Positions 5,207 through 60,690 of a DNA stretch of 64,000 nucleotides are shown piece by piece. Source of the DNA: Butyriboletus loyo (taxonomy: Eukaryota; Basidiomycota; Agaricomycetes; Boletales; Boletaceae); the NCBI GenBank assembly GCA_038093515.1, contig JBBPSI010000060.1, positions 1 to 64,000 on the forward strand. The letters are read 5' to 3'. Position 1 is the first letter of the stretch, and each line of letters begins with the position of its first letter. The notes beneath the pieces are model-generated. The model made no database searches. It saw only the letters and a program-made list of their open reading frames with translations, and was not told where the DNA came from. A program made the position numbers and the translations under genes.

Positions 5207-8200
5207 CTACACATCATAACGCCCCCCGTCCGTATCGAACATCCCCACTGATTCCCAGTAATCCACCCACCGGTTTGCATCCACAGCTGAGAGCGGAACG
5301 AGTTGACGCATCGTCTTGCTCACTCGTTGCGCAACGTCCGTCGCAAACCTCGCCGACCCAGCAACTTCGACATCTTCCGCTGTTACTGCATCAAACGAAC
5401 TCGACTGGCGGCGACGCATCGCTGCATCACCTTGAGCCAAGGTACGCATGAACCCGAGGAGTTTGAGAGCAGGCTGGTCATCGTGACGGTCGTCGTACAA
5501 GGATAGCAAAGATGAAACAAAAATAAAACGAAAGCATCAGCGACTCGATGTCATCAAGGAGCTTGAACGTCCGACTGACCGCACGTCGGACATCCTCCTC
5601 GCTCGTGTCAACTGCATGTTTTTCTAGTCTTTCCACCCATTGAGTGAATGAGATCAACGGGAGAGGGGATGATGTCAGTCCTTTCTGATAAATAGCCTCG
5701 CTGATAGGCTGCACGACAGACTTCCATGTGACGGGTCGGGGATGCACCAAGTTCATGGTGGGAGGGGGTTCCTCGTCTGCGAACGCAACGTCCAGTATCG
5801 CATCGGATACAGCATATGGAGGAAGCCACGACGTAACCTTTGGGTATGTGTAAGCCCCAAAAAAGGAGCCTGTTGAACGACTTACCCCATGAGCTTCTGG
5901 AAGCGTGCCCAAGGTCACACTCGACTTGACGATGATGGGAATCCAGTCCGTGGTAGACCACGCACCCCGTGGTGCACCGCCCGTGATTTGACCGATCCTG
6001 AACGACGTTGCAGGTAAACTGCTCGCCGCGAGGATCTGCAAATACAAACATGTGCAAATGTAAAAACACAATGATCGGGATCGACGATCATGTATACGCA
6101 CCCGCTCAGACACATACTTGCTCGCACCATAGCCGGGTCCCACAGCAACCCCTGCGTCGAACTGTACCTCTTCTGGGAACGATTCCTTGCTTTTGTCCCA
6201 TCCTTGCGCCGACGCCACAGACGACGTGAACAAGAACCTTGGCTTGGAGGCTCGCCTCGATCCACGCGCGAGGTCAATCAAGTTCCGCATCCCCTTCACG
6301 TTCGGCCCAAACGACGACAGCGCGAGATTGAAATCGATCCGCCACGCGTTGTGGATGATCACCGTCACCGAATCGCGGATCTCGCGGTACGTCCGATCGT
6401 CAAACGACAGGTTTGATCGGGCCAAGTCGCCCTCAACGTAGACCAACTTTGCAGAATCGATAATGGCGGGGTCGAGCCCGCGATCCTCGAATGCGGCGTG
6501 CTGTCTCTGTTTGATCGTACCCGACTTGGAAGGCCGGTTGACCGCATACACGATAGCGACGTCCTTGCGGCTCAACAGTGAGGCGAGCAAATACGAGCCC
6601 AGCCCACCCGTCGAACCGGTCAACAGAACGACATGGCCGTGATGGAATGTATCGGGCCTGTTGGTGACTCCCTGTGATACATCGCCAACCTGGTCTCCCA
6701 AACCAATGGAGTACCTGGCAATCATGTCCTCAATCTCTGCTTTAATCTTCGCTTTCGGATCTGGAGCAGAATACGAAGAATCATTGTCTTCAAGAAGGTG
6801 AATCAAATGCCTAGTAAGGAGCCGAAGTGTGGGATTCGAGAAAATGACGTTCTGATCGATCCGAGACGCTGCCGCTCGAATCTCCTCACGCGGGGACGCG
6901 GAGAGCGAGCCGATAATGTGATTCTTGAGAAACGTGGAGGATAAGCTGCCAGTACGTGTACAGATAAGTCAAGATCATACGACGTAGATAGTTAGATAAG
7001 CAGACCTATCGAATCCCTGTTCAAACACATCCATAGCGACTTCGATGGGTTTACCCGCATTGACGGACGTTGCATACACCATTAACCAGTTCTCAACCTC
7101 GGTTTGAGACCAGGTCTGAGGCAGCGGAACATTGATTCCAGCCTGAAAACCCCCTTCCATGGATGCATACCTATGTGGTTTCCGTAACCATAAGGGCGGC
7201 CCGGGATGAAGCACAGGGGGCATAACACTTACAGTGCATCAATCTCTGATTCATACAACGCCATTGTCGCCTTCTTTATCACTGTCCCCTTTCCAGCACG
7301 TAGCATGGGTTTATCTTTACTCGTCACCAAAATCATCTCTTTGAAGATCCGGCTGAATGCGGGCGCCTCCTTGTTGGCTTCCTCGACTTCCCGCCTAGAA
7401 ACGGTGTCAGCTTGAGTTCACACGATGAAAAGGAAAAGGCACACACCAAACCTTGTTCCTGAATTCAGCGACCAGTTCGCCGTCCGTGACGTCTATCGCG
7501 TACTCTGGCTTGGGTTCCACGAGCACCCCTGTCTGGTCACGGCCGCGTCCAAACATGCAAACGCCGAAGAGGATGGGACTCGCGCTGATCACGGTTTCCA
7601 TCGGAGCCGGAACAGTCTTTTCTCCCGAAGAATGAATCAGGACGTCGTCAAGCCTTCCAACGCTATACGCCGCGAGGTCCCCGCGATGAGCACAATGTGA
7701 GTCTAGAAAGCGCACGCAAGAGACATACATTTTATACAACCCCTCGATGGTGGGATGTTTGATGAATACATCCGCGGTCGCGTAGCCTCTCACGTCTGGG
7801 AGGTTCTCGAGAGAGGGCTGGTACGTTGGACAGGTCTACAGAGACACGATCAAAAGTAAGTTTACGAATGGCGAATTCCCAACAAACACGTACCAACACT
7901 TGAAACTCATACGTTCCGTCACCCTGTGGAACCCATCGTATGTTCTGGTTCAACCCAAACCATATCCACTCCCAAAGGTAGTGTTCAGCTGGATTCCGGA
8001 GTATATTTGTAAGCGGGCCAAACTCCGTCCCGCCATATAAAGATGTAAGGTTAACGCCAGCGGCAACCAGCGCGTCCCCCGTCTTTTTGGCGAGAGGACC
8101 ACCTCCGAAAGCCTAAGAGGGTGCATGTCAAGCTACTTGTGACGGCACGAGAAAGGAACAAGATGATACGTGCCACATACTCCAGCGAGGTGAGAATGTT

Positions 8201-17723: not shown

Positions 17724-18592
17724 TGCCACAGAGGTAAACACAACGAATTCGGCACCGTGCATGTGTACATTTTGTTCAGGAAGAGACATCGCGTGACCGG
17801 TGAATACACACTGCCGGCCCGGGTACTGGATTATATAATCAGGATAGAAAACCTGACTTGGAATGTCGCCACGGATCATAAGTACTCTATTAGCGGACGG
17901 GGTCCTGAGACTTGAGGTCAAGAATGAGACCGTCGAAACTTTCAAGCTTACCCGACTTACTTGAGCCGCACGACCTCACCTTTGACCTCGATCGAGGCCT
18001 CACCGCTCTGGTCTGCGAGAAGAGTATGATTCGCCGACGCACTTTCAGATTTGAATCTGACTATTTCAAGTCCGGTAAGAATACGTCTAGGAAATGCAAC
18101 CAGTTCGCCGATACTAGTACACAACGATACTCTGCAAGGTTTGGTTCGTATGTTGTGTTCTCTGCATCGCCGGACACGGGCTCTATCATAGCGTATGTCT
18201 GCCTCCATATCTATTACTCTTACAGCTAGATCCAAATGTTAGACCGCTTGCGCCCGTTCTCCACTTAGCTTGGGTTTACTTTAGTTTACCCTGTGAACAA
18301 ATAGCAAACAGCACCACTATTCCTAATCCGGCTTGCATACTGCGACGAACTATGGGAGTAGTGTTGTCTGTTCGGTTTGAAGATGAGCTACTAGGTGAAA
18401 ACTGTCTCGCATTTTGGGTCTAGCTGTAATTTGCGACTTCAAGCACTAGATCCGCAGCGAGTCACATACTAGTAATCAGCAACAATTCGCGTCAGGTGAG
18501 TTCATTGTTCGGCTGTCCAGTCTTCGATACGGAGAACGTATAAGTAGACAGCATGAGGTGACACCCTCTCATTGACAAGCCCCTGGTTCACA
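17724..18592. other. Shared upstream region of acyl-CoA oxidase and ELO elongase
   Basis: The two lipid genes are divergent across about 870 bp. Open frames at 17912-18229 (plus) and 17957-18235 (minus) overlap each other and have no recognisable domain. I see no additional gene. Confidence 0.5.
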
Positions 18593-19811
18593 ATGCCCTA
18601 CTTGGCTGACTTCATCCTTTCCTACGTCACTGCCGACCGTATTCCGATACATCTTACCTCGTATATACCAGGCAAGACCCCATTCTCGACATGGCCTACG
18701 GTCATCAGCATGGTTGTGACATATCTTGTCGTCGTATTCGGGACTCGCGAAACGATGAAGGACAAAGTACCTTTGAAGTTGACCACCTTATTCCGAGCAC
18801 ACAATCTAGCATTGAGTGTTGGGAGCCTTGTCCTCATGGCACTTATTGGTGAAGAGGCATTCTCGAATTGGCTGAAGCCCGGGATAGGCACATACGGCTC
18901 GCTGTGCGCCAGCGAAGCCTACACGCAGGTAAGTCTTCTAATACGACTTGATTACGCGACTGAACACACATCGTTCTTCAAGAGAATGGAGTTCTACTTG
19001 ATGCTGAATTATGCCTTCAAGTACTACGAGTTCATTGACACGGTCTTCATGGCGCTGAGGAAGAAACCTCTCGGTGGGTATCCTGCGTTCACTGCCGATA
19101 ACCACTCTGATGAATCGACCAAAAAAGCATTCCTGCATGTGTATCACCATGCGGCTACGGCGATTTTGGTATTTGTCCAGCTGAATGGTCGATCAACAAT
19201 GGTAGGCATCATCTATTGTGCACTTTAGCACGCGAACTTTGTCTTTTCTTTTCTAGTGCTGGGTCCCGGCATTCCTTAACCTCGGCGTTCACGTGTTGAT
19301 GTGTGCGTGTCAGACACCTTCGTGAAGTATACTTCATACTCATGCACAGCCCAAAGATTACTATTACTATGCCACAGCTGGTGGTGCCAAACTATGGGTA
19401 TGCATTATTCATTTAATCACAACGGACCTTGGTTCACGTTGAATGTGACTCAGTGGAAGCAACACCTTACGACGATCCAGATTACCCAATTCATAATCAT
19501 TCTAGGAGCAGTGTCCTTCACCAGTGAGTGTCAAAATATCATCGTCTCTCGTCTTGTTTAAATATGACATCGTCGTAGGCTATCAGTATATTGCGTATAA
19601 TTGGTTCTCTGGATATCTCCCTCATATGGGGGATTGTGCTCTTACACCCACCTCGGTCATCGTCGGGAGTGGGCTCATCTTCAGCTATCTGCTATTGTTC
19701 ATCGACTTCTTCTATAAAACATACCTGCAGAAAACTGGATCGCATAGCTTGGCGACGTGGCCGCGGTTGGCTATACCTCAACACTCCAAATTAGTCGTGG
19801 TTGATCGGTAG
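18593..19811 (+). CDS. ELO-family very-long-chain fatty-acid elongase
   Basis: It is the condensing 3-ketoacyl-CoA synthase of ER fatty-acid elongation. Seven exons join in frame to 296 residues: 18593-18928, 18983-19073, 19128-19201, 19257-19302, 19357-19397, 19454-19523, 19579-19811. Motifs are YEFIDTVFMALRKKPL, the catalytic HVYHHAATA (HxxHH, rebuilt by removing the 54-nt intron 19074-19127), HVLMYYYYYATAGG and YNWFSGYLP. Multiple hydrophobic helices are seen. Splice junctions 2, 4 and 6 each restore family-conserved residues, so the model is firm. ELO substrate chain length cannot be told from sequence alone. Confidence 0.95.
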
Positions 19812-39187: not shown

Positions 39188-42100
39188 TCACTGCATCAAT
39201 GCCCCTCTGGGTTTCCTCAAAGATTCCGCGATTCCAAGGAACGTCTGTGAGAGTTGGACCTGTGGAATGTGGATTGAACCTATGAATAATTTAAACTATG
39301 AAAAACAACCTACGCTATCAAGTGCTTCATGGAAGGATGACTGCGTGTTCATCAGCGCAGGCGTCTTGCTCTGCACATCGAGTGCGACGGTGACCATGCG
39401 CTCCATTCGGGTAGAGGTCGTTTTCGGACCGAATAAGATAGCGTGCAACGAAAGTCCTTTCCTGTAAGTGACGTGAGCTTGACACCAGTTTGAGACATGG
39501 AATTGAACGCTACATACCCTTTCTGTGCCGTTCTTCGGAAGAGTTTTTGTACTGCGGTGTCGGTAACGGAGGCAATGCCATCGGAAAGGAAGATGATCAC
39601 GGGGGGGCGGGTGTCGTCCCACCACTTCGATATGGCTATATCAGCGGCTCTGAGGGCCAAGTCAAAAGAGTTTCCTCCCTTCGGATAATTCGGGAGGAGG
39701 AGATCGAGGAGCTCATCCGGAGAACTCGTAGTGTCGCTCTCGCACACGGATTGCGTGCTCTGAGCGTGTAAGATGATAGTGTTCGCATCACGCTGGTGAC
39801 CGACAGCAGCTTGACGGGCGGACCAGAAGCTGTACAAGGCAGAGTAGACGGCTCCGAGTCGATTACTCATGCGTGAGCGTATCTTCGTACATACTGGCGA
39901 GTTTTCGAGTGGCGTTCTGTCATTCTTGCTCATTGACATCGACCTATGCAAGCTTGTGAGCACGACACATCCGGAACCAAGACAGGTCATTCACCTGTCG
40001 ATCAAGAAGATACTGTTGATAACTAGTAGTCAGTTTGCATGCTTGGCAGTTTCATTTCGAGCACGCACATGTGGAACGGTTGCTGTACAGATGCCGGGTT
40101 CCTACATGTGAATTGATGCCCATCCCTTGAGATATAACCTTGCTTCATCTGAACACTAGCACTCAATGGTGCATGGAAAAGCGGGAGAACACAGAATGAG
40201 TGGACAGCAGGCTTCCCTGCGGGATTGATCAGACAAGGACAAGAAAGACACGGAATCCGAACTTACCAGCACACATTGAGTCACTTGAACAATGATGTTA
40301 AGCGAAACGCGAATGGAAACATGTAATCATATGTAGCTCGACTTACCACTTTGCAAAGTTTGCTTGCTCTTCGCGCGAATACGGATCTTTGAACCCTGCA
40401 GAGAATGAGCCATGGAAGAGGGTGAACGGAAAGGATCGACTTGCCACTACGCTTCCAAAACAAGTTATGTGTCAAAAAGTCCTTGGGTCGGCCCGGTTCA
40501 GGTTGAAGTTTCCTCGTAATATGTTGGACTTCGAGATTTCCTCGGCACTCGCCTGGTGTCTTGGTTCTGCAATAGTCGATGTGGATGTGTCTACCGAGCA
40601 CGTGGCACACCAGGTTGCACATCATCGGTGCACCTTCGTCGTTCGTCGAGAACCGTCGGCCTTCGACCTCAAGACCTTCTTCGTCTGGACCATCGACGGA
40701 CCAGCGCACATTCGACATGGAACCGTGGCGCGTTACGTGTTCTTGCTTTGAATGGCCTATTTAAACAGAGCAGTTAACCTTCCCGATTTCGGTCTAGGCT
40801 CTCAAACCATACCCAAAGGAAGTGTGCAGTAATATTGACAACTCGCACATCTGTTCATACGTCAGCTAGGGGAGACATGCCCTGGAATCAACTAACCTTT
40901 CTTGACAATAATGGACGACATCCGGGTCCAAACTGTGAGCATGCGAACCTTCATGTTGTAACTGGCCTGGAGGGATGAGCTTGACGCATTTAAGCCGTTT
41001 TGCAACTGAATATCCATTGTCAATGGGACGCTAACTATGTACTTCCAACAACTCACCTTGCGAATACTATACCCATGCACCGAATGCGTTTAGTGTTCAG
41101 CCTGCGTAAAGGAGAAGTGGGGACGTACCTTCGTGTACTGGAAGCATTCATGCAATCCTTTGAATGTTTCTTCAATTGATTCAGGGGCTGTGTCAATTTC
41201 GCATACGCCAGGGGTGGTACATCGCTGAGAACAAGCATGTGGTTTCCTAAGGAAAGCATCTCGTTCCACAGTTGTGAAAACACCGCCGGATCACGCACCC
41301 GCAAAGATGCATAGCATCTGGTTCCAATGCGTGTAAATGGTTAGGACTCGAGCAGAGCCGCTTGCAAAGTTGGCAAGGTATAGGACAATACTGTGCGTCA
41401 CATTGGTGACTTTCGTGCACGACGTCACTGATGACGCCAAAGATTAAACGACTTTGACCGTAGCTGCGGCCGTATGAGCGCACTTACACTGAGATTCTAC
41501 ATCTTCCTTTGCATCTGTACTCGGATCCGTCTGCAATCGTCACATAGCAGAGGTCGCACGGCTAGGGATGTGAGATATAGCATATAGCATGGCAAGTGAA
41601 AAGTGATAGTTACCTCGCCGCAAGCATGTGTAAGTGCTGCGCATTGGTGGTCATCGTCTTGGTGGTCCGAGACCTTAAAATCGTAAGTAACAGAAGGCCA
41701 AGGCTTCAAATATAGCCATACCTTGGCACATCCCTCGAGGCATCCGTTTTTCCCCCAGAGTTTGCACTGCGCACCACACAAATGGACGTTGACCGAACAT
41801 CTGGGTGGGCAGTCATGCATCATGAACGGACACGACAGATTCAACGAAAAGTTTGCTTACACGTGCTTTCCAGAATGTCCAGCTCTAGGAAAAGAATGGT
41901 GATTTATCCTCAGTTAAAATCTAGATGTTACTTACGTCATTGTGCATTTCTTTTCCTCCCCTTCCTGAAGCTCACCCGCTTCCGCACAATACTCGCAAGA
42001 CTGCGTGCAAGTATGCGTCGTCTTACAGTCATGCACCCCGTCATGGAATCGATTCTGAATGCAGAACAGTTGGCAAGATGCACATTGCACCCGACAGAGT

Positions 42101-45100
42101 TGCACGCTGCTCTTCAAGTCAATAATAGCGCTCTCAAGTGTCCGTTGCAATTCCATCACACTCGCGTGACCGGCCTGGAAACGCGTCAAGTTGGACCTGA
42201 CCCATGCTCGTACGTGATCGACGCGCATTTCCGCCAGATCTTCCAGGTACTGAGCGAGCCCCTCTGCCCACTGAATATCAGGAACAAGCTGGCGGGAATC
42301 AAACTCATCCCATTCTGGGAACAGCGCGTCTAATACTTCTTCATGATTCATTGTCCGCGAGTGGTCAACACCGGCGACGAAAAAGCGAGCGTCGGCATCT
42401 GGGCAATCTATCGGCATGTCCGTGTCTAGGTTCTGAGTGGTAAAACATGTTATCGTTATCCGGTCATATGCAGAAAGTTCCGAAATATACCTTTAGCGGC
42501 TCGACTTCGGGCTCTACGTCTTGCATACCGAAGGCTAGGGCGGTAGGTAAGAGGGTCAGCAATAGCTGTGCACGATGCGAAGCCATGGTTTCTAGAAGCG
42601 AATCAGCAACCAAACTGAGGTGAACAATGCAACCGCACGAGAAAGCGCTCCCCAGTCATTTGCCTAGAAAGCATTAGCATCATATGTATACTCATCTAGT
42701 AATCTAACCTTGAGTTTCGCCATCAGCGTCTTCATCAGATGTAAGAACTCTCCTGCCGCCTTGTGTGTCACATCTTGCCGATCAAGGCGCCTCTTCAGTG
42801 TCGGGAACAATTTGTAAAAACCCCTCGTTTCGATTACTGGCCTGTCATGAGGGTATAACTATGCTGTGCTCAAAGAGACCGATGCAGAATCTCACCATGG
42901 GATGATGTCAAGTTTGCCCCCATGCAGGCGGGAGATGAAGTTGGCATCTTGCTCTTCTTCGACTATTTGTTGAAACTTGAGCGAGAACCTGAGAAAAACC
43001 AAAACCTCTCTCACAACATAGTTAGAATCATATTTATGAAAACGCTTACTCTCGTGCGATTTCCGCCTTGTCTGAGTCGACGACGTCTTTGATGATGATC
43101 ACCAAGGTGGACTGGAAAAGTGCAGGGTTTGCGACAGGGTCCAGGACCACCGAGCTAGACTGGAAGGATTGAAACAGCCCAGTGATATCACGGCTGAGAG
43201 CAAAGTTATTGCGGAAGAGGACCTAAGGAATCGGGTCAAAGGTTTCTGTCCTATTATTGATAGATGCAAACATACCAGATTCGATATTGCAGTATTAAAG
43301 AGAACGAGAAGGGTATCTTCCTGGGCTGAGCGTTCTATGCTGTGGACACCTGCGAAGTTGTTATGGGCATGGATGATCAAGATCGGACACCATGACCGAC
43401 GTACCTTCAAAATCGAGTGCAACAATCAACGCTTCTTCAGTCGGAGTCACAGACATCCAAACACCTTCGGTAGTCCGCATGGCTGATCCAGCGAACGACG
43501 TATCGACAAGGTGGTTGAGGGCGAAACTTTTCCCGACAGACTGCTCTCCCATAGAGGACACAACCCGGACAGGCTGCAACAAGGTCAGCATTAACTTGTG
43601 AAGCAGTCGTGCACACGGGAGGTTCGTACCTTGTCCGCCATGTAAGACTGGAATATGGACTCGTACCACCCAAACGATATCGAATCGACAATACGATTGA
43701 TCTCGGCGCCAAGCAGCGACCTTTCGACTTCGACAGAGTATACGCCATCCTTGAGCGGAACAAATCGATTGTCTCTGGCGAGTGCCAGATGGATGGGAAT
43801 GAGGCAGAGAATATCGACAACCCATTCTCCGACCTTGAAAAGCGACGTATTCTTCCACTCCGCATGGGGGGAAACATCAACCACGAAGCTGTTAAAGGTC
43901 GTCGCAGAGACATGCAGCGTGCTAAGCTTATCTCCAGTTGGCTTCTTCGATGTCCTTTCAAATGTCTCGATCATGTCAGCAAAGTGGGCCCGGTAACGAT
44001 TATGATCCCGATCAGTGACGAAGAGAATTGAACGACGGAAACGATCACTCGATGAAATAGTGGCACGCTGGACTGCCGGGAGAACCGGGAAGCGTGTCCA
44101 TACATCGGCATGACAATCCATGACACAGTTGTGCCCCGTAAGATGAACATCTCTCGACAGAGGGTCCCGGATGTCCTTCTCCCTGAACATGAACTCAGTA
44201 ACCTTTCGGGTGATGTCGAGGACGACAGAGCTGCAAGTCCGAGCCAACAAGTCCAGCTTCAGAAGGTAAACGGCACTTCTGCGAACGAATGAGGTGATGA
44301 CCAGATTGCTGTCGCCAGCCCAATTTGTGATAGGTAGTGGGACCCCATCGGTGGACCCAAAGGTGCTCCAATGATAAGCAATTATACTAGTAGAAGTGCC
44401 ATCCGAGGTTACGACCAAGAAACACGAGCCGTCTGGAGAAGAGTGGACATCGATTGGCACGTGATGAAGATCCAAAGAAGCTGGCCTGAAAATTCGTCAG
44501 AGTCATAACAGGAATTGATTAACTGGAGGTACACACCGAAATTGCATAGTGGTGAGTGAGAACACACGGGCAATAGCCTGAGAGTCGACCAGCAGAAGCT
44601 CCTCGCTCCCTGAGGTGAAACATGTTTTCTTAATCGTCGTTCCCTCACCATACCATGAATTGAGGTTGATGGTACTACCAGATGCGGTGAATCCTCGGCT
44701 TTCGTCACGAACAAAGACGTTTAACTGCAACTGAGGGGTCTTCAGTTTCAACCCAACATTCGAATCCCCCAGATTGCATACCTTCTCACAGGAAACCACA
44801 GCAAGCATAGCCTGAGATTCGTCGAACGCCAACAAGAATTCTCCACCAATCTTATCTCGATGAAGCATCTTGCCACGCTCGCGTCCGATGGAGTTCTCTA
44901 TACTGTTGAGGTGGTCCAAATGAAGGTGGAGGTTGGCGTTGCGGTCAATCAATACCAAGAATAGTCTATCGCCTTCAAGGAGTTGCGAGTACCTGAAAGA
45001 CATCAACCATCACGCCTAAGAGTGATTAAAAACGTCAATCTCACGAGACCGAGAACCCTATTGGCAGCTTAAAGGAGTACGACTCCTTGAAACGCGGATT

Positions 45101-48050
45101 CGGTACCTTAGTTGGATCAAATTGGAGATCATGCTGATCTTGTGTCGTAAGGTGCATGAGATGAATGGTGAACAACAACGAAGCCTCCCTCATTGTCTCT
45201 CGATAACCAGTAATGTCAAAGCTCTGTGGGCCTGGGACTCCTTGTAAGCCAAGGAAAGCGAGCTCAGGGAACTTGGACAGACGTTTGTGGCTAGAGTCTT
45301 TGCATTGCATGACGGACTTGAGACGCAGAGTGTACCTTGGAGATCGTTGGTTACAGACAGTCAAACAAACCGAAAAAAAAACCTACAGAGAATCGCATGA
45401 CCCCGATAGAGAATTTATCTTCTGAATCAGAGAACGTCCCGCGTCACGAAATTCTTGTTCGCTACGACGATCCACTTCGAGCTTCAGCTGCGCCTGGGTA
45501 TCATCTAGTTGTATGCGACGGGCAGAATTAAGAAGAGTCCGACAGAGCCTATCCACAAGACTCCCGAGGTATTTCTGGGCCTGATCCTTCGCAGCCTTTA
45601 TTGCTTCTTGCAACACAGGCATAGTGGACGAGAGACCCTCGAGGTCTGCGATGAAGTCCGGGTCGTTAATGAGAGAAGGCTCGTTGCTACCTTCCTTGAG
45701 CATCTTCTCGGCACTTCGCGTCTCAGCAGTCGTCGGCTTGGATCGTTCGTCCGCTGGCGTCGCGATTTCGTGGAGGATAGAGGCCAGGGTGGATTGGAAC
45801 TTCCGCTTGTTGTCCTTGTAAACTGATCGAACAAGTGCAGTTAGCTGAGTGTCGTTTTTGTTAACGAGGTTCCGGGATAAATAGAGGACAAGAAGAATTT
45901 TTTCCTTTGATTTTCTGAAGTTTTCGTCAATGATATTCTTGCAAGTGGCTCGGCGAAGTTCATCAGTGAAATTGTCCGCAATACGTGGGTGAATCGTTGT
46001 TAGGTTGGAATAGGATTCTAAGAAATGTCCTCAACGCAAATACAGAACCATCGACACAACCACTCACCACTCAGCCTCGATTCTTCATCATGACTGAGAG
46101 CTGGGACCGAGGCAAAGCATCGGCTACGATCGAGCGTACTAAAAGTTTGAGCGTGAGTGGGGAACCAGAGATAGAAATGACAACAAACGGATAGCCAAAA
46201 AATATAGCATTGACGACTGCGAACCGGATGCTTGATTCCGTGTGGGCCCTGGCCGCGCTCAACTTATCCTCGGCCTTCTTTTGCTGAGATTCCATGTCCT
46301 TATGACACGCCAATCTAATGGCGTTAACTTCCTTCGTCCAGATACCACATTCGTCAGGGAAACGTTTGCCGAGCCCCAATCGGACGAGGCGGTCGACTGA
46401 TCTGGGGCCAATATTCTCTGATATTTGCAGACGCTCTTTCGACCTGTCAACAAGTTATAAAAACGTGAAGAGAGTCGTGACTTCAAAGGCATACAAAGCA
46501 TCTTGTAGCAGAAAGGTGGCGAGCCTGAAAGAGTTGAGGGTCTTGACAAAGCGCTTGACAGGCGCATATTGTATTGTCATGAATCCTTGCCTCGTTTCGC
46601 CGAATAACAGGCGTGGCTTGAAGAACTCGGGATCCATATCACACTCTGGATGCAGCTCGGTGACGATGAGCTCGTCGGAAGTGCACTGAGAAGTCGGATA
46701 ATGTATTCATGCTCGGATAAAAGATGGAAAGGCGACATACCTCAAATCCCTGGCGTACGGAGACGCCTTCCTCCTGCTCCTTCGTTTTCGCAACTTCGAA
46801 GGTGAATAATCGATCGGTATCATCTTCGTCGGATTCAGAAAGCTGGTCATCGCTGACCGAATTGATCCAAGTCATGGATTTCGCATAGTCTTCTGAGATC
46901 AGGGCTATGATTTGATCGCAAATCTTCGTGAGGTATCTGAGAATTCGTGCATCAGTGAGAGTTTATAATTCATACCAAGTTCCAAGATGATTTCACCTCA
47001 TGAATGTGACACGATTTCGACGCACAGGTGGAGAAGCATCGTCGTCCCACGTCGACTCTTCAGGCCAGTAGATGACATACATCCTTTCCGCGGCACCAAC
47101 AGACTCCGAAACGCGGCAAATGTATAGGCCAGAGCGGAGAGCTGGTTTTTCGCTTCTTGCCTCCATAGAAACGTTCAACTTAGTCGCACTGTCGAGATGT
47201 CAACGACCACAAGTGAATCACGAGTGAACAGCGACATACATGGTGTCATCAATAACAGCTACGGAGACCAAAAAGCGGACAATCTCGTCTTTGCTCCCAT
47301 AAATTCCAATGGGCTTCACTTCGAACTTATCAAGCGCCTTGAAGTCGACCTTCGTCGAGGACATGTAAGCGCCGGGAGAAATTTCATTCAGGAAACGCTT
47401 GAGAGAATCTTGTGCGATGATGATCTTATCAACTTGGCGGATGTGAGAACTAGCTGGGACGTCATGTATCATCATACCTAGACCGCTAGAGCCACGCTCG
47501 TTGATCAAGTCGAGGATGCGATACATTCCAGGGATAGAAAAACAAATATCCTCTTCGGAGCGAACCTGTTCCGCGGCTTCAACGTCAGGCTATAACAAAG
47601 CGTTCGTGAGTGTAATTTCAGAATTACCACGATTATATCACTACTCACGTCTTCCAGTTCTTGGTTCCCTTGTTGTTCGTCAAGATCCATGGACTCAGTG
47701 ATGTCTATTTCCTGGTCGTCGATGTCATCATCGAGACCAATATTCATGTATGACGAATCGGAGGACTCTGATTGTGACTCTGACGCAAGTACAGAGCCAT
47801 CCGGAGGACTTGTTTCATCCAAATGGTCATTCAGAATCATGAATGAATCCTCTGCATGTCTGACAGAAGTCAAATCAATATCGACATCAGAATTGACCAC
47901 CTCCAACATGATGGACATGTTCACGGGCAGATATAAGTCGAATGTAAGTTGTTGGCGTAGAACGACAGGTTGTGGAGCAATGTGGGTTGTGTTATTCGGA
48001 ACTGAGATAAAGCTAGTGGCAATTAATACTCGTAACCTCTGTGGGTCCAT
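39188..48050 (-). CDS. Giant GBP/VLIG-like GTPase with Cys/His-rich region and C-terminal VWA domain
   Basis: The gene spans 8.9 kb with several dozen exons, roughly 2,300 residues by my estimate. From the N-terminus (ATG 48050) come an acidic region, helical/coiled segments (45,300-47,500) and a propeller-like part (SHVPIDVHSSPDGSCFLVV-type repeats, about 44,000-44,950). The GTPase core has P-loop GEQSVGKS (about 43,527-43,550), MRTTEGVWM, G3-like LDFEG and IIIKDVVDSD in the position of the GBP R/KD motif. A long Cys/His-rich stretch follows (QCASCQLFC, HVCSVNVHLCGAQCKL, HQCAALTHACGE, PCDLCYVTIADG, CPIPCQLCKRLC). Next come CNLVCHVLGRHIHIDYC and TGFKDPYSREEQ-like sequence. The VWA domain has MIDAS DRSMSMS, GGNSFDLALRAA and IIFLSDG. 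The protein ends ESLRKPRGALMQ-stop at 39188. Partner genes and function are unknown. Confidence 0.85.
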
Positions 48051-48700: not shown

Positions 48701-51700
48701 ATGCCAGCGCAAAAGGATTGTCACCGCTCCGAGACACCAAACCCGCACTCGCCGCATCTAACGCAGGTCATCGCCAAGTCTGATCTAAAGCGCCTCGATA
48801 GCATGGCCCACAGTCATGGTTGCGGCCATTACCCCGAGCTCAACTACGGATCCGGAGCAAAATGGATCAAGAACTTGACCCAAAGCCGGCTCTCAACATT
48901 CCTTGGCGGCCATTTTCAAGACGTCAACCTCTCCTCTGTGCTCTATACACACAGACTCGATGGTCCTAAATACGTGGACCTGCAAGTCTGGAGTGCCCCC
49001 AGGCTGTCGAAACCCCTGTTCGAGGAAGCAATCCAGCAGACGTTCAAACCTGCGAAGAAAGGTGACTCGTTTGGGCCATCTTGTGAGTCCCTGATATAAA
49101 TCCATTGTGATCTGCTCTGACACAATGAAAAGGGGTACGACCGTCATAAGGCGCCATCGCTTTACAGGGATGTAACTGATATCGCCTCGCTTCACAGACA
49201 AATCATTGGTGGAAGGTCAAGATTACAATCCCGTCTGATTGGAAGCAGTACGAACGCGTCCAGCGTGCGTCTATTTCTCCCCGTCTCGACGACAACATTC
49301 TGATCAAATGGTAGTCGAATTTGATCCCGGATGTGAAGCCATGATATTCACTCCAGAGGGTTTGCCGTTGCAGGGTTTGTCTCGAGAATCAATCCGTAGT
49401 TATTTCTACTCATCACACGTCTTCAGGGATCACTGGTGGCTATGACGGTAACCGTCGCGTGGAGCACATCATCCCTCGTGAAGCTGTCGAACGGGGTATC
49501 TACGAGGTAGTCATCGAATCTACCTGCAATGGGATGTTTGGAGTGCCATGGAATGGCGATATCATCGCACCTCCTGACGTGAGACAACTTATTTCGTTCC
49601 TTGCGTGGCGTTCATTTGTTGATTTCAGATGAACAAATACTACAGCTTGGCATCCGCTGATATAGTAGTTCCCAACCAAGATGCATGTATGTCTAACAAC
49701 AATGTTTTTGAGACTCTCATTGATCATTTGTGATCAGGGCACCTCATGTGGGACTTCAACACGCTGAGAGAGATCGTCGATAGTTTGCCAGGCAACACCT
49801 CGCTACAAAACAAGGCGCTAGTGACTGCAAATGCGATCATGAACGCTTTCAAGACAGGTGACTCAGAGAACATCAAACAAATGCGAGAGATTGCCGAAGA
49901 TGTCTTTGGAAAAGGTTGGCAGGCAAAAGGCCCGAACATTTACCAAGAAGGCCCAGAAAAGGCTAAAGTCGTCGGCATCTCCTACTGCCACATTGTGGGG
50001 AACCAAAGTCATATGACGAAGCTCCGCTGATGCGCCGCACAGGATACAGCTTGGCTGTGGCCATACCGAGCCACACAGCAGAAGACCGCGAGATCATGGT
50101 CAACTCAAATTGATCTTATGGAGCGCTATCCGGAGCATAGATTTGCTTGCTCACAAGCACAACAATTCAAGTGGTTGGAACAGGTAATCTTATACCCAGC
50201 TCGTGTAGATAAGAAGGTTGACCTTGGGGCGCAATACAGCAATATCCCCCGCTTTTCAAGAGGATTCAAGAAAAGGTCGCATCTGGGCAATTTCACCTCA
50301 TCGGTGGTTCCTGGGTTGAAAATGACGGAAATATGCCATCTGGTGAGGCCCTCGTTCGACAGTTTGTGTATGGGCAGCGGTATTTCGAGTCTCGATTCGG
50401 TCAACGTTGCGAGACAGCTTGGTTACCTGATTCGTTTGGGTTGACTGCCGCATACCCTCAGTTGATCAGAGATGCGGGCATGAAGTATTTCTTTACGCAA
50501 AAGCTCTCCTGGTAGGTGTGATTGTTATTTTGTGTGGGCGGGCATCTCATGATTGTTCATCCTGCCAGGAACAATGTGTACGTTATTCAATTTACTAACC
50601 CTTTTCAACGACGGACTGTGCTGTTTGCAGAAATGTTTTTCCTCACTCGACCTTCAATTGGGTGGGCATTGATGGCACTCAAGTCTTGTGTCATATGACC
50701 CCAGTTGGTAAGAGGTTCCTGATGATAACGCTGGATGATTATAGTCATTCGACCACTTGATAGATACCTACACAGCACAAGCAACCGTCGGTGATGTGAA
50801 CAAAGGCATTTCGAATCACAAGGTCAGTCGTACTTCCCCAGTGATTTCTGTTACTCAATAATGACAGAATCTTGAATCGAACGATACTGCCCTTCTTGTC
50901 TTCGGAAATGGTGACGGTGGTGGAGGTGCCCTCCCAAAGATGCTTGAGAATGTACGTTTACGCCCAATCAGTGCACTCCATCTTTGACAGTTGGATAGCT
51001 TCGCCGAATCCGAGCAGTAAACAACACTCACCGTGAACTCCCGCCTGTGAGCATGGGCAACACAGTGGAGCAATTCTTTGAAGACATAGAACGAGAATCA
51101 AAGGAAGGTAAAACGCTTCCAGTTTGGTACGTCTTTTTCTGTTGGAGCTGTGCTGTGTTGCTCATTGGTGGCAGGCGTGGAGAATTGTATCTCGAGGTAT
51201 ACTGTCTTTTTATACATGATGTCATAATCCGTCTCATCGTCCCGTTAGTTTCACCGTGGCACGTATACTTCGCACGGTGAGTGAGGACTAAGTGCGAGAG
51301 ACTCGTGAATCATTGTTAAATTATCAAGCTTCCATCAAAAAGGGAAACAGGAAGAGCGAGATCTTGTTGCGGGACGTTGAGGTATAGAAACTTCTCTTCA
51401 CCTCCCGTTTCCTAGTTAAAAAGCTCCACAAGCACCTCGCAACTCTCGCAACGCTTTTCAAATCTGAACGAAGCTCTTATATATACCCAAAGGCGACGAT
51501 CGATGACTGTTGGGAGAAAGTTCTCCTGAATCAATGTTTGTGCTATTAATTTCTTTTATTCCGTATCTGATCATTTCTTGTAGTCCATGACGGTATGTTT
51601 GATGTGAAAACAGAGTATTTCGGATGAACTAATAGGTTCTTGACCTCAGTTCTTCCTGGATCTTCTATGTGAGCATTCTTTAAGAACGGAAGAGCGCCAG

Positions 51701-58370: not shown

Positions 58371-60690
58371 ATGTCGAGCGCACCAGAGATTAAACAGGAT
58401 ACGCGGGCAGCCCCCAGCGAGCATCACCACGACCATCATCCAAAGCTTGATCCTCAAACGAGAGCTATTGTGTGAGTAGCCATCACGTCTCTTCCCTCAC
58501 TGCCCGCCGACGCCGACCCCGCTGTTACATAGAAATACGGATTCCTTGTTGTCCAATCCGCTGCGGGGTATCCCTTACGACCAGCTTATGTCTGATGTCG
58601 AGGTCTTCTCGAAAGAGCGCGGACTGACACACGTTCTCTCTGATTTGAAAAAAGGTGCTCTTTTAGCACAGGACCCCGAAGGTGTGTCTCACGAACCCGT
58701 CCTTCTCATTACTTGAACACAATGGTTATTTATAGCATACAATCGCTTGGACGTCTTCACTGAGGAAGACAGGCAGGTCCTCAGTGACGAGGTGAACCAC
58801 AAATGGAGACAAACCGGAACACTCTACTACGTCAGTGTATCTCACATTTCCGCAGTCATTATAATAATCTCCCACTATAGATGGTTATCATGGCCTCATT
58901 GGCGGCTGCGGTGCAGGGTATGGACGAGGCTGTGATCAATGGCGCTCAGATTATATACCCAACTCAATTTGGAATTGGTGACCCAACAAGCAGTGAGCAC
59001 CCTAGTTTTATATTTGATACCAGTTAGTCACAGTGTCATTGATTAGCACGAGACGGATGGCTAATTGGGGTCGTGAACTCTGCGCCATATCTGTACGTTT
59101 TTAGACTGTTAAGTTGGCCCGCCCTTCGCTGAACGTGTGCACAGGTGTTGCGCGACCATCTCTTGTTGGCTGACTGATCCTCTCAACCAATGGCTCGGCC
59201 GCAAGAAAGTCATTTTCATCACGTGCATGATATCCTTCCTCACTTGCATCTGGTCCGGTCTCACCAATACATGGTGGCATCTCTTCATCGCACGGTTTTT
59301 CCTCGGATTTGGTATTGGGCCCAAATCAGCCACCGTTCCTGTGTACGCTGCAGAATGTTCCCCGGCCGCAATCCGTGGAGCGCTTGTCATGATGTGGCAG
59401 ATGTGGACTGCATTTGGTATCTTCCTCGGTGATCTCATCGACCTGGTGTTCTATTTCATCCCCGACACACCTGGCGTTAAAGGCCTGAACTGGCGGTTGA
59501 TGCTTGGATCGGCGGGTATTCCGGGCTTGATCGTCTGTGTCCAAGTTCTGTTTGCACCAGAATCGCCTCGTTGGTTAATTGGCAAGGGTCGCTATGAAGA
59601 TGCCTTCAATGAACTGTGCCGCCTCCGTTTCTCTCAAGTTCAAGCCGCAAGAGACCTCTACTACATTCACGTCCTACTAGAAGCGGAGAACGAGATGAAG
59701 AAGGGGAGGAATCGTATCGTGGAAATGTTTGCCATACCACGAAATCGGAACGCGGCATTAGCGAGCTGGATTGTCATGTTTGGCCAGCAATTCTGTGGTG
59801 TCAACGTCATTGGCAAGTCACTTTGTATGCGAAGATGCTTTCGTACTTACAAATGAGCATAGCCTATTACTCCTCGAACGTCTTCCTTGCAACCGGTGCC
59901 ACCCAAGTTGGTGCCCTGGCTTCTTCGATTGGCTTTGGTGCATTGAACTGGCTTTTCGCACTTCCGGCCGTATTTACCGTGAGTGTGCAAGATACATTTC
60001 ATCCGCTGACCTTCATTGAAACGTTGAAATGTAGATTGATACCTTCGGTCGTCGCAATCTCCTGTTATTTACATTTCCATGCATGGCGATCTGTTTGCTT
60101 ATCACAGGTTTCTCTTTCTGGGATCCTTCCCAGCAGGGTCGTACTGCCGGAGTCGCCATTGGGATATGTGAGTGCCATATTTGGCTGTGCTCGCTCCCTC
60201 TGACACTTTCATGTTAGACCTCTTTGCGATCTTTTATTCACCAGGAGAAGGCCCTGTTCCATTTACCTACTCTGCCGAAGCATTCCCACTGTACATTCGT
60301 GACATCGGGATGTCGTTTGCCACTGCTACGACCTGGTTCTGGAACTTTGTGCTCTCCATCACATGGCCATCACTCATCCTTGCCTTCAAACCTCAAGGTG
60401 CCTTTGCGTGGTATGCTGCGTGGTGTTGTATCCTCTGGTTCCTCATCCTCTTGTTTGTTCGGGAGACCAAGGGCAAGACGCTTGAAGAATTGGATCAAGT
60501 CTTTGCGATACCTACGCACGTCCATGCTGCATACGGACTTCGTCAGATCCCATACTGGATCAAGAAATATATATTGTTCCAAGATCCAACTCCGGAGGAA
60601 CTGTATTTCCCCGAGTCGGATAGCGAGGAAAACAGCAGGGTTGATGAAAAGGGTAGGAAAGAGCTTCGAGACGACGTTGAGAGAACGTGA
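58371..60690 (+). CDS. MFS sugar/polyol transporter
   Basis: It is a plasma-membrane proton-coupled transporter of the sugar porter family. The N-terminal tail is His-rich (SEHHHDHHPK). After several short exons, transmembrane segments start at MVIMASLAAAVQGMDEAVIN. Family motifs are DPLNQWLGRKKVIFIT (loop 2-3), ARFFLGFGIGPKSATVPVY, AAECSPAAIRG, LFAPESPRWLIGKGRYEDA (PESPR), GQQFCGVNVI, DTFGRRN-type sequence and YSAEAFPLYIRDIGMS. The C-terminal tail has VRETKGKTLEELDQVF (PETKG-like) and a long acidic/basic end; stop 60688-60690. The form is that of the fungal inositol/polyol-like subgroup with extended N- and C-termini. The substrate is not deducible. Confidence 0.92.

What the first reader, a model, noticed from the sequence alone, without database searches (positions are those of the whole stretch)
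39188..48050. Giant fungal VLIG/GBP-like GTPase fused to Cys/His-rich region and VWA domain
One 8.9-kb gene combines an immune-type large GTPase core (GEQSVGKS, RTTEGVWM, DFEG, IKD) with a propeller-like region, a long array of Cys/His pairs and a MIDAS-bearing VWA domain. In animals the closest GTPases (GBP, VLIG) act in cell-autonomous immunity. I know of no defined function for such a fusion in fungi, so it is a candidate innate-immune or heterokaryon/self-nonself effector. The function is inference; the domain motifs are seen directly.
Basis: partly seen in the sequence, partly recalled or inferred. Interest (0 to 1): 0.88.

Follow-up and report, generated by a model that had tools for sequence, protein, structure and literature searches.

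The report
Giant mushroom GTPase, zinc-ladder, VWA protein
A bolete mushroom carries an intact, very large gene whose protein joins a predicted beta-propeller, a GTP-driven motor related to animal immune GTPases, a long predicted metal-binding ladder and an adhesion-type domain; it belongs to a conserved fungal family whose function we could not find described.

Summary
The gene is real and, by its sequence, intact. It lies on the minus strand with its stop codon at 39190-39188; the start is most likely 47918, not 48050. My spliced model has 39 exons and 2238 aa. AlphaFold2 models of two homologues show an N-terminal alpha/beta domain, a beta-propeller apparently split by a ~330-aa helical insert, a GBP/atlastin/Sey1-type GTPase with helical stalk, and a VWA fold. 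Between GTPase and VWA, 69 of 76 Cys/His are at least 90% conserved. GTPase, Cys/His ladder and VWA occur together in 120 of 120 listed homologues. Glomeromycotina have relatives, one with GTPase and VWA hits. In five members from other orders the GTPase is 80-86% identical, the helical insert 17-22%. The gene is often multi-copy; one branch appears to have moved from Boletaceae into Amanita. Ten paper searches found no description. The domain claim is confirmed; immune function is plausible but untested; VLIG membership is not supported (URGCP-like profile below cut-off). I read it as a new variant of the GBP/RHD3/VLIG class, most likely a GTP-switched self-assembling scaffold.

The parts
39188..47918 (-). 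Whole coding sequence, 39 exons, 38 introns (42-63 nt, one GC-AG at 40444-40396, one 10-nt microexon 41066-41057), 2238 aa; an upstream in-frame ATG at 48050 exists, but orthologues P0001, P0002, P0006 and P0241 start at 47918
   Evidence: hand splicing checked against orthologues; no transcript available
47545..47918 (-). Acidic, poorly conserved N-terminal tail (aa 1-105)
   Evidence: the first 93 residues of the homologue model are below pLDDT 50
46846..47544 (-). Conserved N-terminal alpha/beta domain (aa 106-286)
   Evidence: fold; 51-86% identity in 17 homologues; no Pfam hit at E<=1; a 701-residue query that includes it found 64 proteins, those 11 that I mapped being colinear family members
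46440..46788 (-). First beta strands of a split beta-propeller (about aa 306-386, approximate)
45299..46427 (-). Long helical insert inside the propeller (aa 391-716), the fastest-changing ordered part
   Evidence: 17-22% identity to five members of other orders, against 80-86% for the GTPase
44221..45226 (-). Rest of the beta-propeller (about aa 727-1010)
   Evidence: pLDDT mostly about 90 or more
42590..43800 (-). GTPase domain (aa 1151-1430): G1 GEQSVGKS 43549-43526, G2 RTTEGVWM 43477-43454, G3 DFEG 43414-43348 (across an intron), G4 IIIKDV 43099-43082
42112..42589 (-). Helical stalk after the GTPase (aa 1431-1570), aligned with the helical region that follows the G domain in GBP1 and Sey1
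   Evidence: GBP1 1f5n 304 residues at 4.4 A, Sey1 5ca8 310 residues at 3.8 A; several atlastin alignments over the same span have rmsd of 17-20 A
40104..42096 (-). Cys/His ladder (aa 1576-2006), presumed zinc-binding; 11 H-x-C motifs
   Evidence: 69 of 76 Cys/His conserved in at least 90% of 120 homologues; no Pfam match; model confidence low in most of it
39344..40076 (-). VWA domain (aa 2016-2205) with MIDAS-like DRSMS and SDG, Thr replaced by Asn

Best explanation
It is a soluble giant large-GTPase scaffold. Shown by sequence or by model: intact gene, GTPase of the GBP/atlastin/Sey1 structural class with its catalytic motifs, propeller with helical insert, conserved Cys/His ladder, VWA fold. 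Inferred: the N-terminal domain, propeller and variable helical arm bind a target or partner; GTP binding makes the G domains pair and the protein assemble into a lattice or coat, as GBPs and giant GVIN GTPases do; the Cys/His ladder is a metal-stabilised spacer that presents the VWA domain for partner binding. The most likely use is cell-autonomous defence or containment of intracellular intruders (bacteria, viruses, foreign nuclei or membranes). Likelihood: GTP-driven self-assembly about 0.65; defence role about 0.35.
For: Fold and motifs. G domain plus stalk aligns with GBP1 (304 residues, 4.4 A) and Sey1 (310 residues, 3.8 A). No clear membrane anchor: the highest 19-residue mean hydropathy is 1.8, in one conserved segment at the start of the GTPase region. 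Conserved engine with a variable arm: GTPase 80-86% against helical insert 17-22% in five members of other orders. Multi-copy: for example 9 Imleria badia proteins among the 120 listed, 2 full-length copies in this genome. Probable horizontal transfer into Amanita. A human giant GTPase is reported to form an antimicrobial coat (title, abstract start and found passages of PMC11974893).
Against: The GTPase and C-terminus are very strongly conserved, which also suits a housekeeping machine. No expression, knockout or challenge data were available. The helical insert may vary from weak constraint rather than from an arms race; selection could not be tested because relatives were held as proteins only. 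GBP2 shows Arg in the P-loop where this family has Ser. The altered MIDAS (Asn for Thr) may weaken metal binding in this branch. Both models are of homologues, and residues 545-845 of the C-terminal one are mostly below pLDDT 60, so the ladder geometry is unknown.
Confidence: 0.45

Rival explanations
1. A membrane-remodelling GTPase, an atlastin/Sey1 relative that tethers or shapes internal membranes.
Against: RHD3 scores below its curated cut-off (34.3 against 42.4). A simple hydropathy scan shows no C-terminal membrane hairpin, and the C-terminus is instead Cys/His ladder plus VWA.
Confidence: 0.2
2. An RNA-surveillance or ribonucleoprotein scaffold, in the manner of SMG8/SMG9 or NHL-propeller proteins.
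Confidence: 0.15
3. A heterokaryon-incompatibility or kin-recognition factor of basidiomycetes.
For: Multi-copy and variable insert; probable horizontal movement.
Against: Relatives in Glomeromycotina; no allelic data; Pfam finds no known death-inducing domain.
Confidence: 0.12
4. Two neighbouring genes wrongly read as one.
For: Some annotations look split, for example Butyriboletus J3R82DRAFT_8568 and 8569 and Chiua virens JVU11DRAFT_11581 and 11582.
Against: 111 of 120 listed homologues are single models with all six regions; the frame is open across all junctions.
Confidence: 0.04

Closest known systems
Guanylate-binding proteins (GBP, Pfam PF02263)
   Different: P-loop Ser where GBP2 has Arg, KD in place of RD (RD recalled), propeller in front, Cys/His ladder and VWA behind, several times longer
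VLIG/GVIN giant GTPases and URGCP (Pfam PF25683)
   Same: Giant size with an internal G domain (VLIG size recalled); URGCP_GTPase matches 18 of 36 members at E<=0.01, best 1.1e-11 in Rhizophagus P0201
   Different: Below the PF25683 cut-off in each protein whose score I saw; propeller, ladder and VWA not known to me from VLIGs
RHD3/Sey1/atlastin membrane-fusion GTPases (PF05879)
   Different: Below the PF05879 cut-off; no apparent C-terminal membrane hairpin
RNF112
   Same: Top Foldseek match of the GTPase model, E 3.3e-10, 12% identity; pairs zinc-binding RING and GBP-type GTPase (RING recalled)
   Different: Far smaller, with no propeller or VWA (recalled); the ladder here is not a recognised RING

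Membership tests
GBP (PF02263) | Profile score above the curated cut-off | tested here: met
   24.5 bits against 21.1; also above it in P0129, P0201, P0191, P0114 and P0057, below it in P0180, no hit in the partial proteins P0219 and P0207
GBP (PF02263) | GBP-type G domain plus following helical region | tested here: met
GBP (PF02263) | P-loop arginine finger (arginine-finger role recalled) | tested here: not met
   GEQSVGKS; Ser opposite Arg in the GBP2 alignment; Ser in 120 of 120
GBP (PF02263) | RD nucleotide-specificity motif (recalled) | tested here: not met
   KD; K in 119 of 120, D in 117 of 120
GBP (PF02263) | GTP-dependent dimerisation and hydrolysis | not testable with these tools
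   needs protein
VLIG/URGCP (PF25683) | Profile score above the curated cut-off | tested here: not met
   20.4 against 55 bits in the window protein; highest seen 44.6, P0201
RHD3/Sey1 (PF05879) | Profile score above the curated cut-off | tested here: not met
   34.3 against 42.4; P0219 37.0
RHD3/Sey1 (PF05879) | C-terminal membrane hairpin (recalled) | tested here: inconclusive
   highest 19-residue mean hydropathy 1.81; the four best windows lie at aa 1137-1158 and 1314-1332, none near the C-terminus. A simple scan, not a membrane predictor
VWA with MIDAS | VWA fold | tested here: met
VWA with MIDAS | DxSxS, Thr and Asp metal ligands | tested here: inconclusive
   DRSMS and SDG kept; Thr is Asn here and in 15 of 120, Thr in 104 of 120; metal binding not testable
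NLR/STAND receptors | NACHT or NB-ARC ATPase | tested here: not met
   no such Pfam hit at E<=1; the P-loop domain is GBP-class

The most novel reading that the evidence does not exclude
Fungi, including mushrooms and arbuscular mycorrhizal fungi, have their own giant-GTPase arm of cell-autonomous immunity: a propeller sensor switches a GBP-class motor that builds a coat through a metal-stabilised ladder tipped with a VWA adhesin. The system is ancient, expanded by duplication and passed horizontally between ectomycorrhizal genera.
Probability: 0.25. Interest if true: 0.88.

Novelty: new variant of a known kind. Interest (0 to 1): 0.64.

Why it matters
A protein of more than 2000 residues whose motor stays 80-86% identical in members from other orders of mushrooms, that is often multi-copy, and that has apparently been gained by transfer, must do something valued. 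Its nearest structural kin are membrane-fusion and interferon-induced GTPases. If it is defensive, it would give fungi a counterpart to animal GBP/GVIN immunity; if not, it is a large cellular machine that I found undescribed. Either way the domain map given here makes it directly testable.

Tried and rejected
Rejected: URGCP/VLIG membership (below cut-off); RHD3/Sey1 membership (below cut-off); NLR/STAND (no hit). The Cys/His ladder was not filed as NF-X1, RING or any other named zinc finger because Pfam found none. The Pfam VWA profile found nothing in a six-frame search of the own genome, probably because the VWA exons are short and the domain is divergent.

Led nowhere: viral-contig scan (18 stretches matched a pattern, none a relative); genome-contig scan of bacteria and archaea (35 stretches, none a relative); NCBIfam on three homologues gave nothing near a cut-off; the PDB sequence search with one sequence gave only weak GBP and Sey1 hits (E 0.0059 and worse). 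Foldseek against viral structures gave giant-virus proteins, led by an atlastin-like one (E 3.8e-10) and one annotated as guanylate-binding protein (E 2.8e-9), then dynamin, AIG1, Rab and VWA proteins; I read this as the shared GTPase fold and did not follow it. Ten paper searches gave no paper on this family: five listed 0 papers, three listed 1, one listed 2 and one listed 4. From the titles and abstract starts all but the GVIN1 preprint were off topic; of the GVIN1 preprint I saw four passages.

Limits: the N-terminal alpha/beta domain and the ladder were not folded alone, so I make no claim that their folds are new; the propeller filled the list for the N-terminal model and the GTPase most of the list for the C-terminal one. 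Natural selection was not tested: relatives were held as proteins only. Ascomycota and animals were not searched directly; they are absent from the named rows listed, but only 120 of 622 and 120 of 271 hits were shown.

Full report
Gene. The window lies in a 30.3-Mb, 420-contig genome, and the nearest proteins are from boletes. On the minus strand I first spliced 36 exons by hand into a 2328-aa open frame. Alignment with eight homologues showed that three short in-frame introns had been kept (47477-47433, 45282-45241, 44781-44731) and that orthologues begin at the residue encoded at 47918. The corrected model has 39 exons, 2238 aa and ends with the stop at 39190-39188. It has one GC-AG intron and one 10-nt microexon. 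Against six orthologues the only gap or insert of 4 or more residues shared by all is a missing stretch at aa 1967, 8 residues in five and 7 in one.

Family. All 120 have the GTPase, Cys/His and VWA regions, and 111 have all six regions I defined, by at least 60% filled columns. A search with 572 residues around the GTPase found 271 proteins, 120 listed, among them Tilletiopsis washingtonensis and nine rows from Rhizophagus, Racocetra and Scutellospora. The Rhizophagus protein P0219 has GTPase hits (RHD3 37.0 bits, below its cut-off) and a VWA_2 hit above its cut-off, so the pairing is probably older than the Agaricomycetes, unless it moved. No relative was found in IMG/VR or in the bacterial and archaeal genomes by pattern scan. 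The N-terminal query found 64 proteins, with only the 7995 candidates sharing most words scored; the 11 that I mapped are colinear with the window protein, and several look like split gene models.

Evolution. In five members that I place in other orders (P0057, P0072, P0085, P0094, P0114; orders recalled) the identity to the window protein is 80-86% in the GTPase and 17-22% in the helical insert; in the paralogous bolete proteins P0037 and P0043 it is 87% and 23%. The genome has a second copy, matched exon by exon along the whole length of P0037 at G000:C26:40544-49901, plus a weak fragment on C182. Two Amanita proteins, A. brunnescens P0007 and A. rubescens P0008, fall inside the Boletaceae branch, with one unnamed metagenomic row and then B. 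edulis as nearest (SH-aLRT 99, quick tree of 26 rows). Holding five bolete and two unnamed metagenomic rows together without Amanita is rejected (p-AU 1.0e-4), and holding Amanita with Mycena and Armillaria is rejected (p-AU 1.4e-52). The groups were named after a first FastTree had been seen, so the p-values are optimistic. Horizontal transfer from Boletaceae to Amanita is the simplest reading; contamination is made less likely by two species with 92% identity to each other, but is not excluded.

Function. Mechanism by analogy: GBP-class G domains pair on GTP (recalled), and human GVIN1 is reported to form a coat around bacteria (PMC11974893: title, abstract start and four passages seen). I therefore favour a GTP-switched self-assembling scaffold, with a defence role as the leading use. 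The evidence is circumstantial: strong motor conservation, a variable arm, copy-number growth and probable transfer. Membrane remodelling, RNA surveillance and kin recognition remain open.

Novelty. In the listings these proteins are named hypothetical, VWFA domain-containing, VLIG-type G domain-containing or guanylate-binding protein N-terminal. Ten full-text searches of the held open library found no paper on them; most subscription papers and the bioRxiv library were not covered. I call it a new variant of a known kind: known motor, unusual architecture, no function found in print.

Noticed in passing
homologues P0007 and P0008: Amanita brunnescens and A. rubescens copies nest inside the Boletaceae branch: probable horizontal transfer between ectomycorrhizal genera.
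   Followed up: partly
window 40283-40216 (exons around the intron 40266-40217): The window protein lacks 7-8 residues (GSEHxASG-like) present in all six orthologues compared, including a His of the ladder; a real deletion or a splice form I did not see.
   Followed up: partly
homologue P0001, residues about 2262-2486: The Boletus edulis model carries a second VWA copy at its C-terminus, a tandem duplication or a fused gene model.
   Followed up: no
window 41066-41057 and 40444-40396: A 10-nt microexon and a GC-AG intron inside one gene, both used to keep the frame in line with homologues.
   Followed up: partly
G000:C182:38742-38906: Weak match (E 3.1e-6) to the propeller part of the family, perhaps a gene relic.
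   Followed up: no
window 50222-50512 +, 59113-59853 +, 18557-19225 +, 5481-6968 -: Ordinary neighbours by Pfam (eight frames scanned, two without a hit and two only weak): GH38 alpha-mannosidase, sugar transporter, fatty-acid elongase (ELO), male-sterility-type reductase; no defence gene among the frames scanned.
   Followed up: partly
viral structure library, A0A5K0U7I4 and A0A5J6VIQ5: Giant-virus proteins annotated as atlastin-like and guanylate-binding protein match the GTPase model by fold.
   Followed up: no
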